Assembly (NCBI RefSeq): GCF_000425805.1
Contig: NZ_AUED01000003.1
Span: 372,001 to 436,000, forward strand
Source of the DNA: Pseudomonas vranovensis DSM 16006
GTDB lineage: Bacteria; Pseudomonadota; Gammaproteobacteria; Pseudomonadales; Pseudomonadaceae
Reading direction: 5' to 3'
DNA: 64,000 bases
This document shows, piece by piece, positions 6,001 through 20,300 of this stretch (within the stretch, counting starts at the first letter, position 1; each line of letters opens with the position of its first letter). Under the pieces are notes generated by a model. It was not told the DNA's origin. It did no database searches and was given only the letters and a program-made list of their open reading frames with translations. Both the position numbers and the translations under genes were made by a program.

Positions 6001-6057
6001 ATGCACTTTCGTGCATTGGAGCAATTGCAATTTGCCCAATCGCTCTGCATTATGCAG
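6001..6057. promoter_or_regulatory. Palindromes upstream of the tailocin repressor (probable operators)
   Basis: Two palindromes lie in the mutS-repressor gap: ATGCAC/TTTC/GTGCAT (6001-6016) and CTGCAT/T/ATGCAG (6045-6057). The second covers a possible ATG at 6052, which favours the ATG at 6061 as the real start. The same TGCAT core is repeated downstream of the repressor gene, so autoregulation is likely. Confidence 0.6.
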
Positions 6058-6060
6058 TTT

Positions 6061-6795
6061 ATGCAAAAACGCAATGTAGCATCCGTCCTCAGAGCACTGC
6101 TCGACCGCCACGGTATCTCCCCCACGGAGCTTCACCGGCGTACCGGCGTGCCGCAATCCACCTTGTCGCGCATCCTCAGCGAGAAAATCGTCGATCCGTC
6201 CGATAAGCATGTGTCAAAAATCGCCGAGTACTTCGGGGTAAGTACCGATCAACTGCGTGGTCGTGTCGACCTGGGCGAGAGCCGCGAGGCGGTGCCAGCC
6301 CGCAGCCATGCCGAGTTGCACGACATCAGCCTGTGGGATGACGACACCCCGATCGAGGACGACGAGGTGTCCATTCCGTTTCTTCGCGAGGTCGAATTGG
6401 CAGCAGGATCAGGACGATTCGTCATCGAGGAAAGCGAGAAGGCCAGCCTGCGCTTCGGCAAGCGCAGCCTGCGCCACAACGGCGTGCAATTCGACCAGGC
6501 CAAATGCGTCACCGTACGTGGCAACAGCATGCTGCCGGTGCTGCGCGATGGCGCCACGGTGGGGGTCAATGCCGGCAAGAGCGGCATTGGCGACATCGTC
6601 GACGGTGATCTCTATGCCATCAATCACAATGGTCAGCTGCGCGTGAAGCAGCTCTATCGCCTACCTACCGGCATCCGCCTGCGCAGCTTCAACCGCGACG
6701 AGCATCCGGATGAAGACTACAGCTTCCAGCAGATGCAGGAAGAGCAGATCAGCATCCTCGGCCACGTCTTCTGGTGGGGCATGTACGCCCGCTGA
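6061..6795 (+). CDS. XRE-S24 (LexA/CI-like) tailocin repressor, PrtR-like
   Basis: 244 residues. The N-terminal helix-turn-helix (ISPTELHRRTGVPQSTLSRIL) is followed by a linker and an S24 peptidase domain. A plausible self-cleavage site lies in ELAAGSGRF, the nucleophile Ser in GNSMLPVLRDG and the base Lys in QLRVKQLYRL. Proteins of this layout repress R-type pyocin or prophage genes until RecA filaments trigger autocleavage. An alternative ATG at 6052 adds three residues. The gene is transcribed in the same direction as the tailocin and ends in a strong terminator. No PrtN-like activator gene is present nearby, so the regulation may differ from P. aeruginosa. Confidence 0.88.
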   Translation: MQKRNVASVLRALLDRHGISPTELHRRTGVPQSTLSRILSEKIVDPSDKHVSKIAEYFGVSTDQLRGRVDLGESREAVPARSHAELHDISLWDDDTPIEDDEVSIPFLREVELAAGSGRFVIEESEKASLRFGKRSLRHNGVQFDQAKCVTVRGNSMLPVLRDGATVGVNAGKSGIGDIVDGDLYAINHNGQLRVKQLYRLPTGIRLRSFNRDEHPDEDYSFQQMQEEQISILGHVFWWGMYAR

Positions 6796-6812
6796 AGTGT
6801 CTACGCGATGTG

Positions 6813-6839
6813 AAAAACCCGCCTTGGCGGGTTTTTTTT
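6813..6839 (+). terminator. Terminator of the repressor gene
   Basis: AACCCGCC/TT/GGCGGGTT followed by eight T residues, just after the repressor stop codon. Confidence 0.9.
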
Positions 6840-6881
6840 CGCCTGCTGAAAACCCGTAAGCCCTTACCAGGCAAGGCTCCA

Positions 6882-6953
6882 ATGCATATGCGCATATCGG
6901 CGCGCATAAATATTTCCACAAATGCATTGACTGCATATGCATCAATGCATAAT
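6882..6953 (+). promoter_or_regulatory. Tailocin promoter with clustered TGCAT palindromes
   Basis: A -35-like TTGACT (6927-6932) and a -10-like CATAAT (6948-6953) are separated by 15 bp. The palindromes ATATGCGCATAT (6886-6897), AATGCATT (6921-6928) and TGCATATGCA (6932-6941), and the pair ATGCAT-CA-ATGCAT (6937-6950), overlap or adjoin this promoter. A repressor bound here would block RNA polymerase. The block is AT-richer than its surroundings. Confidence 0.65.
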
Positions 6954-6960
6954 CTTTGTC

Positions 6961-18117: not shown

Positions 18118-18141
18118 TCTCCGGCAATTCAAATTACGACC

Positions 18142-18164
18142 AGACCCCGCCACGTGCGGGGTCT
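18142..18164 (+). terminator. Intercistronic hairpin before gpD
   Basis: AGACCCCGC/CACGT/GCGGGGTCT, then GCCTTTTCAGGAGCG with the gpD ribosome binding site. Same arrangement as the hairpins at 8708 and 12939, with a weak T run. Confidence 0.6.
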
Positions 18165-18185
18165 GCCTTTTCAGGAGCGTGAGTC

Positions 18186-19229
18186 ATGCAACCTGTGTTT
18201 CGCCTTGTCGCGGATGGCAAGGACATCACCAGCCTGATCAATGACCGGCTGCTGCTGTTACGCACTACGGACAAACCCGGCATGGAGTCCGATGAGTTCG
18301 AACTGCGTATCGATGATCGCGACGGGGCCGTGGTGTTGCCCGCTCGCGGCGCCACGATCGAGGTGCATCTGGGGTACTCGGGGCAGACGTTGACGCGGCT
18401 GGGGCGCTACACCGTGGATGAGGTCGAGCTGGCGGGTCCGCCGGACAGTATTGTTATCCGGGGCAAGGCCAGTGACATGCGTGGCACGGGCAAGGCGATA
18501 CGCAGTGGCAGCTGGGAGGGCGTGACCTTGCAGCAGATCGTGCGTGACATCGCCGCACGCAATGGTTGGCAACCGTTGTGTCCGGTCATTACGCCCGTGT
18601 CGCGGGTCGATCAGTTGAATGAATCGGACTTCCATTTCATCACTCGCCTGGCCAGGCAGTTCGACTGCACCGCGAAGATCGGAGATGGCAGCCTGTTGGT
18701 TCTCCCGCGTCAAGGCGGGCACAGCGGCAGCGGCAAAACGCTTGGCATCGTCACCCTGGAGCGTGGTGACGTGAGCCTTTGGCACATTCACCTGGCTGAC
18801 AAGGGGGCCTACAAGGCTGTGCGAACTCGCTATCAGGACGCCGGCAGCGGCCAGGTGAGGGCCATAGACCTGAGCAATGGCGCCTCTCCCGATGGCCTGC
18901 AGCCGGTGCATATCGACCGGCATCTTTACCCGAACAAGACAGCCGCGGAGCAGGCGGCCCGGGCACGTCTGGCCGCATTCAACCGAAGTACCGCCCAGGT
19001 ACGCCTGGAAATGGCCGGGCGCACAGACTTGTTCGTTGAACGGATCATCAATACCCAAGGGTTCAAGAACGGCCTGGATGGCGAGTTTCTGATCGAGTCG
19101 GTGGCGCATACGTTCACCGCATCCGGCTGGAGCACCATCGTCGAGTGCAACGGCGGCAAGCAGGGCAAGGCCCGGGCCAAGGGCAGTCAAGCCAGCCGGG
19201 CAGCGTCATTGAAGGCAGAGCAACGTTGA
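18186..19229 (+). CDS. Late control protein D-like baseplate hub (P2 gpD)
   Basis: 347 residues. Characteristic parts are FRLVADGKDITSLINDRLL at the start, SDEFELRIDDRDGAVVLPARGA, VQIV-like LQQIVRDIAARNGW, and ADKGAYKAVRTRYQDAGSG. gpD is the gp27-like hub that joins tube and spike. The last ~20 residues are Lys/Arg/Ala-rich. A hairpin precedes the gene and the endolysin gene follows after 28 bp. Confidence 0.95.
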   Translation: MQPVFRLVADGKDITSLINDRLLLLRTTDKPGMESDEFELRIDDRDGAVVLPARGATIEVHLGYSGQTLTRLGRYTVDEVELAGPPDSIVIRGKASDMRGTGKAIRSGSWEGVTLQQIVRDIAARNGWQPLCPVITPVSRVDQLNESDFHFITRLARQFDCTAKIGDGSLLVLPRQGGHSGSGKTLGIVTLERGDVSLWHIHLADKGAYKAVRTRYQDAGSGQVRAIDLSNGASPDGLQPVHIDRHLYPNKTAAEQAARARLAAFNRSTAQVRLEMAGRTDLFVERIINTQGFKNGLDGEFLIESVAHTFTASGWSTIVECNGGKQGKARAKGSQASRAASLKAEQR

Positions 19230-19257
19230 TCGCCATACCTGGACATGGAGGATGTAT

Positions 19258-19803
19258 ATGACATTGGAACAACTTGCTGCCGTGTTCCCGAGCGCCCGCC
19301 TGAACGCGGGCGTTTTCTTACCGGCATTGAATCAGGCCATGACTCGCTGGGAGATCAACACTCCTCGGCGGGTCGCAGCCTTCCTGGCCCAGGTGGGGCA
19401 CGAATCCGGCCAGCTGCGCTACGTCAAGGAACTGGGGAGTGAGCGCTACCTGGCGCGGTACGACACCGGCAACCTGGCATTGCGCCTGGGCAACACCGTC
19501 GAAGCCGATGGTGATGGCCAGTTGTACTGTGGGCGAGGACTGATCCAGATCACCGGGCGCAACAACTACCGGGCCTGCAGCGTGGCGCTGTTCGGCGATG
19601 ATCGCCTGCTGGGTCAACCGCAGTTGCTTGAGCAGCCGCAATGGGCCGCGGAGTCTGCCGCGTGGTTCTGGCATTCGCGGGGGTTGAACCCGTTGGCTGA
19701 TCGCGGCGAGTTCAACCGCATTACCCGGCACATCAATGGCGGGCTCAATGGCCTCGAAGAGCGGTTGAAGCTTTGGGCGCGGGCCCGTGAGGTGTTGGGT
19801 TGA
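19258..19803 (+). CDS. Endolysin, glycoside hydrolase family 19
   Basis: 181 residues from the ATG at 19258, which has GGAG 7-10 bp upstream; an in-frame ATG at 19252 is too close to that site. Family 19 features are RVAAFLAQVGHESGQLRYVKE (catalytic Glu of HES) and YCGRGLIQITGRNNYRA, with a C-terminal INGGLNGLEERL. It hydrolyses peptidoglycan glycan strands and needs the holin for release, since no signal peptide is seen. It overlaps the Rz gene by 4 bp. Confidence 0.95.
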   Translation: MTLEQLAAVFPSARLNAGVFLPALNQAMTRWEINTPRRVAAFLAQVGHESGQLRYVKELGSERYLARYDTGNLALRLGNTVEADGDGQLYCGRGLIQITGRNNYRACSVALFGDDRLLGQPQLLEQPQWAAESAAWFWHSRGLNPLADRGEFNRITRHINGGLNGLEERLKLWARAREVLG

Positions 19804-20300
19804 GCCGCGTGCAACTGGGTGGAGTGCTGGCGTTGATGCTGCTGGCTTGTGCGCTGACCTGGCAGGTTCAGGGCTGGCACCTGGAGCGGCAGTTGGCGCA
19901 GCAGGCACATGCCTGCGCGCGGCAGCGGCAGGCCCAGGCCGAGTCCGCCAGTGCGCAACTGCTTGCCGAGCGCCAGCAACGCGTGGGGCTTGAGCAGCAG
20001 ATGCAGGCCAGTGATCAACTTCATTATCAGGAGCTTGTCGATGCTCGCGAATATCAGGCGCGTTTGCGTGACCGTCTGGCTACTGCTGATCTGCGGCTGT
20101 CGGTCGTGGTCGAGCGTAACGCTGCCGGTTGCACCACTTTGCCCTCCGCCGCCGGCGCCGGCCGCCTGGATCATGATGCCGTACGCGCCCGACTTGAGCC
20201 GGCGCATGCTCGACGAATTATCGCCATCACCGATCGGGGCGACCAGGGATTGATCGCCTTGCGCGCGTGCCAGGCCTATGTGCGGGCATTGGCGCATTGA
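19800..20300 (+). CDS. Rz-like inner-membrane spanin
   Basis: 166 residues from a TTG overlapping the endolysin stop (TTGA); a GTG at 19809 is an alternative. It has one N-terminal membrane segment (GGVLALMLLACALTW) followed by a long heptad-like helical region rich in Gln, Arg and Glu, the Rz layout. Together with a nested Rz1 lipoprotein it links inner and outer membranes to disrupt the outer membrane at lysis. It is the last tailocin gene before cinA. Confidence 0.85.
   Translation: MSRVQLGGVLALMLLACALTWQVQGWHLERQLAQQAHACARQRQAQAESASAQLLAERQQRVGLEQQMQASDQLHYQELVDAREYQARLRDRLATADLRLSVVVERNAAGCTTLPSAAGAGRLDHDAVRARLEPAHARRIIAITDRGDQGLIALRACQAYVRALAH
20041..20253 (+). CDS. Rz1-like outer-membrane spanin lipoprotein nested in Rz
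   Basis: 70 residues in a different frame inside the Rz gene. The ATG has AGGAG about 8 bp upstream. The N-terminus is Arg-positive, then hydrophobic, and ends in the lipobox LLICGC. After it comes a proline-rich patch (PLCPPPPAPAAW), the hallmark of Rz1 proteins. Fully embedded Rz1 genes are known from lambda. The lipobox, the proline run and the ribosome binding site together make this convincing despite the small size. Confidence 0.85.
   Translation: MLANIRRVCVTVWLLLICGCRSWSSVTLPVAPLCPPPPAPAAWIMMPYAPDLSRRMLDELSPSPIGATRD

What the first reader, a model, noticed from the sequence alone, without database searches (positions are those of the whole stretch)
6001..20300. Complete R-type tailocin in the mutS-cinA interval, with no head genes
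The gene order V-W-J-I-H-FI-FII-E-T-U-X-D plus holin, GH19 enzyme and Rz/Rz1 is a P2-like contractile tail module. No terminase, portal, capsid, integrase or replication gene is seen. This is the expected layout of a phage-tail bacteriocin, and the locus is a known tailocin site in fluorescent pseudomonads.
Basis: partly seen in the sequence, partly recalled or inferred. Interest (0 to 1): 0.75.

Follow-up and report, generated by a model that had tools for sequence, protein, structure and literature searches.

The report
Tailocin re-armed by a prophage cassette
This part of a Pseudomonas chromosome carries a full set of headless, contractile phage-tail genes, predicted to make a bacteria-killing particle, and its five-gene aiming end matches the tails of DNA-packaging phages better than those of sister killing particles, so it was likely re-aimed with phage DNA.

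Summary
Between mutS and cinA (window 6061-20300) lies a collinear, headless, R-pyocin-class contractile-tail cluster with prtR, holin, GH19 lysin and Rz/Rz1. No head or packaging gene was found in it. Such loci at this site are known.

Sheath, tube, hub and lysin are nearest to sister tailocins. The block J-I-H-spike-chaperone (9278-12911), plus a decayed phage membrane gene (12913-13375), is not. In a 68-locus comparison, 0 of 33 tailocin-flanked loci carry this block; 8 others do, 7 of them beside terminase, portal or neck genes. Up to 97% DNA identity (100-base bins) joins H and the decayed gene to prophages of the two hosts closest by mutS. In IMG/VR, three other tailocin-flanked contigs carry a block of this type.

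The 256-aa spike is predicted, with high confidence, to be a coiled coil plus right-handed beta-helix, unlike the ~700-aa R-pyocin fibre.

Best reading: a domesticated tailocin was likely re-aimed by taking a phage's baseplate-to-fibre module whole, which would keep fibre and baseplate compatible. New variant of a known kind. Killing and import direction are untested. Side finding: eight relatives keep prtR, holin and lysin in under 5 kb, too short for a tail.

The parts
3325..5892 (-). mutS, left flank (start placed by me)
   Evidence: MutS domains I-V
6061..6795 (+). prtR, LexA/CI-like repressor (HTH + S24 peptidase), predicted SOS switch
7266..7625 (+). holin (Phage_holin_3_5)
   Evidence: PF16085, on the longer ORF from 7188; start
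7628..8146 (+). phrog_1072 tail-cluster protein, function unknown
8143..8703 (+). V, baseplate spike
   Evidence: PF04717, PF21930
8747..8950 (+). small ORF between V and W, unassigned
   Evidence: read from the sequence; not searched in frame
8955..9281 (+). W, baseplate wedge gp25-like
   Evidence: on the longer ORF from 8895
9278..10258 (+). J, baseplate wedge; first gene of the phage-type block
10255..10977 (+). I, baseplate wedge / fibre dock; phage-type block
10974..11660 (+). H, 228-aa fibre adaptor (Phage_tail_fib N-terminal domain); phage-type block
11667..12437 (+). 256-aa spike: predicted coiled coil plus right-handed beta-helix, likely receptor-binding protein
12447..12911 (+). predicted fibre chaperone (phrog_8983; 42% to a record gene noted as similar to a fibre-assembly protein)
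12913..13375 (+). relic of a phage membrane-protein gene, interrupted by an in-frame stop; open in three related prophages
13376..14542 (+). FI, tail sheath
14555..15064 (+). FII, tail tube
15074..15376 (+). E, tail assembly chaperone
15518..17080 (+). T, tape measure, 520 aa
17091..17936 (+). U with an N-terminal extension
17911..18117 (+). X, baseplate hub
   Evidence: on the ORF from 17866; start
18186..19229 (+). D, baseplate hub
19252..19803 (+). GH19 endolysin
19800..20300 (+). Rz spanin
20041..20253 (+). Rz1-like lipoprotein ORF inside Rz
   Evidence: translation; lipobox reading recalled
20360..22016 (+). cinA (20360-20842) and recA (20904-22016), right flank
   Evidence: ORFs; named from their place and from cinA in EU982300, recA recalled

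Best explanation
Between mutS and cinA lies a headless R-type tailocin gene cluster, predicted to be released by SOS-triggered lysis and to kill related bacteria by puncture, whose five-gene baseplate-to-fibre block (J, I, H, a spike and its chaperone) was likely imported whole from a prophage tail. Shown: the gene set, no head gene found, the site, and the mismatch between the block (nearest prophages) and the backbone (nearest tailocins). Inferred: DNA damage activates RecA, PrtR cleaves itself and the operon is expressed; sheath and tube assemble on a baseplate built with the phage-type J and I; H would dock on that baseplate and carry the coiled-coil/beta-helix spike, which would bind surface polysaccharide of target cells; holin, GH19 lysin and Rz/Rz1 would lyse the producer; contraction would drive the V-tipped tube through the target envelope. 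Moving J and I together with H and the spike would avoid a misfit between a foreign fibre and the resident baseplate. The spike-chaperone pair was likely changed again by recombination in the phage-like stretches on its two sides.
Against: No particle or killing was observed. The backbone tree places the window with tailocins only at 92/93 (not starred), and forcing it to the three prophages is not rejected (AU p 0.067). W is nearly as close to prophages (82%) as to tailocins (85%). Between 9.3 and 10.6 kb the prophages (69-87%) are only modestly closer than the other block-bearing tailocins (64-82%). Three other tailocin-flanked contigs carry the block, so it may be old in some tailocins and only partly replaced here. 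The hosts of two of the three prophages are the closest to the window by mutS (95% and 92%), so the high-identity tract is about as diverged as the hosts and need not be recent. The tailspike match stands only two Z units above alginate lyases and was weak by Foldseek. H-spike attachment is untested.
Confidence: 0.75

Rival explanations
1. The whole locus descends by one domestication from a phage of the R-pyocin class that already had this type of baseplate; the common-type sister tailocins are separate or have changed since.
For: Three other tailocin-flanked contigs carry the block; backbone grouping with the prophages is not rejected (AU p 0.067); the G307 prophage sheath is 89% identical.
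Against: Sheath, tube, hub, U and lysin are nearest to common-type tailocins, J and I to prophages; identity to common-type tailocins collapses at the W/J boundary and returns at the sheath.
Confidence: 0.13
2. Transfer went the other way: prophages of related hosts took the block from a tailocin.
For: Direction cannot be read from identity alone; block-bearing tailocins exist.
Against: Of 82 loci with this J and H type, 52 have packaging probes and 4 tailocin flanks; the relic gene is open in the three prophages, broken here and absent from 36 other tailocins.
Confidence: 0.07
3. A decaying prophage remnant without present function.
For: It contains one broken gene (12913-13375), and in the two hosts closest by mutS the tail genes are deleted.
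Against: Tail, regulatory and lysis genes read open, and a collinear gene set recurs at the site in relatives.
Confidence: 0.05

Closest known systems
R-pyocin of Pseudomonas aeruginosa (locus in OQ658366)
   Same: Collinear from holin to lysin; sheath 75%, tube 69%, W 69%, V 60%, D 57%
   Different: J 44% and I 34% (U 46% is low too); a 702-aa fibre there against a 228-aa adaptor plus a 256-aa spike here; site mutS-cinA
Common-type R tailocins at mutS-cinA of pseudomonads (for example L035, L094, L095)
   Same: Site, PrtR, holin, lysin, sheath up to 93%, tube up to 99%
   Different: Their J is 29-43% identical over the 33 flanked loci, which include two of another class; no spike of this kind and no relic gene
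Prophages of P. putida 31753 (L134, L135) and of G307 (L066, probably Pseudomonas sp. JQ170)
   Same: J 81-83%, I 88-89%, H 88-91%, relic gene region 82-84% DNA
   Different: Terminase beside L066 and L135; L134 is cut by its contig end; different spike (36-44%); longer tape measure in L066 (ORF 1135 aa)
Receptor-binding protein plus chaperone exchange in P. syringae tailocins (PMC6331570) and Pectobacterium (PMC13195805)
   Same: Target-range genes swapped by local recombination (passages)
   Different: There a breakpoint inside the Rbp gene, two genes swapped; here the mosaic reaches back to J
CBA120 tailspike TSP1

Membership tests
R-type tailocin | Contractile sheath, tube, tape measure and baseplate genes | tested here: met
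R-type tailocin | No capsid, portal or terminase in the element | tested here: met
   (genes of the interval); 0 PF05125 and 0 PF05876 in the draft genome; portal families not searched genome-wide
R-type tailocin | Holin, endolysin and spanin in the cluster | tested here: met
R-type tailocin | SOS-responsive repressor | tested here: inconclusive
   HTH and S24 domains and cleavage-type sites (meaning recalled); induction not tested
R-type tailocin | Known tailocin insertion site | tested here: met
   mutS-cinA; passages of PMC8319346, PMC7815802, PMC5909648
R-type tailocin | Headless contractile particle that kills related strains | not testable with these tools
   -
R-pyocin class | Collinear gene order and related sheath and tube | tested here: met
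R-pyocin class | Single long (about 700 aa) fibre | tested here: not met
   228-aa H plus 256-aa spike; 702 aa in OQ658366
Rp2 subtype (BW11M1-like) | Tube protein groups with P. putida BW11M1 | not tested
   BW11M1 sequence not searched; Ghequire 2015 not held
Active prophage | Terminase, portal, capsid, integrase or replication genes | tested here: not met
   none identified among the interval's genes
Phage-type baseplate-fibre block of Pseudomonas prophages | J, I, H (228 aa), beta-helix spike (about 250 aa) and chaperone in that order | tested here: met

The most novel reading that the evidence does not exclude
J-I-H-spike-chaperone is a self-contained targeting cartridge that moves as one unit among at least three contractile-tail chassis (R-pyocin-class prophages, a distant P2-like prophage backbone, and domesticated tailocins). 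Tailocins re-arm from circulating phages by taking the docking baseplate along with the fibre, so the adaptor barrier argued for fibre-only swaps is bypassed.
Probability: 0.55. Interest if true: 0.65.

Novelty: new variant of a known kind. Interest (0 to 1): 0.5.

Why it matters
Earlier work proposed that tailocins may borrow fibres from phages but left the link unproven (PMC6331570, PMC12208367; passages read). It also argued that some phage fibres would not fit the tailocin because their baseplate end differs. This locus gives a traceable case: prophage relatives in the two hosts closest by mutS, high-identity stretches on both sides of the spike, and a broken hitchhiking phage gene. It suggests a way round the fit problem, namely exchange of the wedge proteins too. 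If true, phages circulating among a species and its kin feed the target range of its bacteriocins.

Tried and rejected
Short tape measure as a special feature: rejected. Its 520 aa lies within the 467-963 aa of the 31 tailocin-flanked loci where could measure it (longest ORF between E and U, so rough).

A wholly new tailocin class: rejected. The locus is collinear with R-pyocin.

Head genes elsewhere in the genome: the one terminase found belongs to a separate prophage with its own capsid and a minor tail protein.

Spike: a PDB search by sequence gave one hit at E 0.46, taken as noise. Foldseek gave 3 matches at E <= 0.001, all lacto-N-biosidases with query TM-scores of 0.35-0.39; TSP1 came at E 0.003. 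The tailspike match rests on VIA-align's second look. No catalytic activity is claimed.

The tape measure and the spike have no match in the phage record collection. A genome-contig scan with the spike alone confirmed nothing.

PrtN: inconclusive, as the control rang nowhere. The idea that 6937-7203 is a decayed Com-like gene was not tested. My small-ORF query between V and W was out of frame and is used in no claim.

Not in print: searches listed no paper whose title, abstract start or the passages that I read describe a tailocin swap including J and I. Most listed papers were not opened, and Ghequire 2015 is not held, so this does not show that none exists.

How the sets were made: the 68 loci were chosen for sheath similarity (17, 40) or as the 11 loci of the spike search, so they are not a random draw. 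Block-bearing loci overlap with those (for example L139/L064, L140/L069, L141/L065, L143/L071, L145/L068), so the two sets must not be added. One search confirmed 98 loci and kept the best 80. In one search, 85 loci were tried; rows under 85% coverage (55% for I) or with a stop were left out gene by gene. The trees used chosen subsets of 33 rows and 38 rows, and the AU groups were named after identity tables had been seen. For the spike alignment, 26 sequences were used: the identical P0004 and the 163-aa P0028 were left out.
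Full report
WHAT IS THERE. Window 6061-20300, between mutS (minus strand) and cinA-recA, holds PrtR, a holin, a phrog_1072 protein, V, W, J, I, H, a second fibre gene, a chaperone, sheath, tube, E, tape measure, U, X, D, a GH19 lysin and Rz, with an Rz1-like lipoprotein ORF inside Rz. The listed genes read open (X needs a start 3 bases upstream of the one I tested). The order is collinear with the R-pyocin locus in OQ658366: sheath 75%, tube and W 69%, V 60%, D 57%, U 46%, J 44%, I 34%. No head or packaging gene was identified in the interval. The draft genome gives 0 matches to PF05125 and PF05876. Of its three Phage_base_V matches one is this V and two lie in 694- and 766-aa frames on other contigs, probably VgrG (inference). 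Its one PF03237 terminase belongs to a separate prophage.

KNOWN CONTEXT. mutS-cinA is a documented hotspot for tailocins in pseudomonads (PMC8319346, PMC7815802, PMC5909648; passages). A tailocin-site record of another class, EU982300, shares PrtR (83%), holin (79%), lysin (70%), Rz (53%) and part of the chaperone (42%) with the window but no other tail protein at the threshold used, so regulator and lysis genes look like a shared chassis. The tailocin reading is therefore supported and, in itself, ordinary.

THE MOSAIC. I compared 68 loci from genus members with the window. Thirty-three carry a mutS, prtR, cinA or recA match of over 50% identity; two of these (L072, L074) are of another tail class. 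None of the 33 has the window's block; their J is 29-43% identical. Eight others (L064-L071) carry J, I, H, spike and chaperone, and none of these is tailocin-flanked. Seven of the eight lie beside terminase, portal or neck genes, and GpA terminase occurs in 7 of 7 of those genomes but in 0 of 4 other genomes searched, the window's included. The eighth, L065, has a distant backbone (sheath 34%) and no hit with the probes used. I call these prophages for their packaging genes; completeness was not tested.

Two larger scans with an alignment of H gave 117 loci (37, and the best 80 of 98). Of these, 82 have J and H of this type (both at least 55% identical): 52 with packaging probes, 4 with tailocin flanks, 26 with neither. 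The 4 are L171 (100% identical in the proteins compared), L172, L173 and L178. Thirteen of the 82 sit on a distant P2-like backbone (sheath under 45%). No packaging probe matched these 13, but the probes came from one phage, PPpW-3, so their status is open.

NEAREST RELATIVES, GENE BY GENE. Sheath 93%, tube 99%, D 80%, U 71% and lysin 89% are nearest to common-type tailocins. V and W are nearest to tailocins of both types (84-85%), with prophages close behind (V 80%, W 82%). J (83%) and I (89%) are nearest to prophages of P. putida 31753 and of G307 (probably Pseudomonas sp. JQ170, from the contig length shared with P0020), then to the other block-bearing tailocins (J 77-78%, I 79-80%). In the J+I tree the window joins the three prophages (99/98); holding it with L172, L173 and L178 is disfavoured (AU p 0.0136). 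In the W+FI+FII tree it sits among tailocins (92/93, not starred); forcing it to the three prophages is not rejected (AU p 0.067).

BREAKPOINTS AND SCAR. In 100-base bins (tailocins L095, L094, L172, L173; prophages L135, L134, L066; phage contig L254) the tailocins and the three prophages are about equally close up to about 9.28 kb, the W/J boundary. Beyond it the two common-type tailocins fall to 55-75% and mostly stop aligning until the sheath. From 10.8 to 11.4 kb the three prophages are 87-97% identical and L172 and L173 37-84%. Spike and chaperone (11.7-12.9 kb) diverge from all three prophages. From 12.9 to 13.2 kb the prophages are again 82-96% identical, while the four tailocins do not align. 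This last stretch holds a small membrane-protein ORF, open in L066, L134 and L135 and interrupted in the window. It matches 0 of 36 tailocins, 22 of 121 block-bearing or H-related loci, and 1 of 46 other loci by a 31-base piece only (the window-identical L171 was left out). A phage contig with terminase and portal matches carries spike and chaperone relatives at 73% and 75% (L254). The simplest history is import of the block with its trailing phage gene, decay of that gene, and a further change of spike and chaperone between the two phage-like stretches. By mutS DNA, G307 (95%) and P. putida 31753 (92%) are closer to the window than the six other records searched (87-89%). The high-identity tract is therefore about as diverged as those hosts and need not be very recent.

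MECHANISM. PrtR carries HTH and S24 domains, with A-A-G, N-S-M and R-V-K sites in that order, as in self-cleaving repressors (motif meaning recalled). Damage would switch on the operon, tails would assemble, holin, lysin and Rz would release them, and contact would trigger contraction. None of this was tested here.

PRIOR ART. Baltrus et al. showed clean exchange of Rbp and chaperone, with a breakpoint inside the Rbp gene, and suggested sharing with phages (PMC6331570, passages). A 2025 P. syringae study found fibres related to tailocin fibres in intact prophages, called donation tempting but unproven, and argued that RSA1-like prophage fibres are unlikely to fit the tailocin (PMC12208367, passages and section 15). 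A 2026 study found genus-wide fibre-locus exchange in Pectobacterium (PMC13195805, passages). What is added here is a mosaic that includes the wedge proteins J and I, with prophage relatives and a relic gene.

SIDE FINDING: TAILLESS LOCI. G307 and P. putida 31753 keep prtR, holin and lysin between mutS and cinA but have lost the tail genes, at different junctions (window 7871/19070 and 7956/19203). To see how common this is, I paired the 150 listed prtR rows with the 150 listed lysin rows (both lists truncated). Of 103 same-contig, same-strand pairs, 8 are under 5 kb apart, 0 are 5-11 kb and 95 are 11 kb or more. Holin and lysin relatives align in all 8 and in P. putida 31753. Limits: the holin alignments of L321 and L322 and the prtR alignment of L321 each show a stop that I did not examine; L321 ends before cinA; L325 keeps V- and D-like pieces; L326 and L327 have about 2 kb of unassigned DNA between holin and lysin. 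These may be kept as lysis cassettes for vesicle or DNA release, or may be passing stages of decay. A 2026 title and abstract start link a maltocin endolysin to vesicle production (PMC13393414, search listing only).

Noticed in passing
L252, L253, L321-L327 (mutS-cinA region of G307, P. putida 31753, G376, G045, G203, G214, G250, G005, G171): Tailless tailocin loci: prtR, holin and GH19 lysin lie within 5 kb with no room for a tail; 8 of 103 prtR-lysin pairs, plus P. putida 31753.
   Followed up: partly
window 12913-13375: Interrupted phage membrane-protein gene between chaperone and sheath; open in three prophages, no match in 36 other tailocins.
   Followed up: yes
G000 contig C1, about 420-431 kb (L251): A second, unrelated prophage with terminase, portal, scaffold, capsid and minor-tail genes.
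   Followed up: partly
L134, L135, L138 (P. putida 31753): One genome carries three copies of the H-type block, two on the R-pyocin-class backbone and one on the distant P2-like backbone.
   Followed up: no
window 17091-17936: U has a roughly 158-aa N-terminal extension before the gpU domain; phrog_4094 covers the full length, so the form is shared with phages.
   Followed up: no
window 6800-7265: Long stretch between prtR and holin; ORF 6937-7203 matches no Pfam or PHROG family, while EU982300 annotates a Com-like gene in the corresponding place.
   Followed up: no
L038 (G025): Two sheath genes about 4 kb apart near cinA, the upstream copy followed by a tube fragment: a rearranged or hybrid locus.
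   Followed up: no
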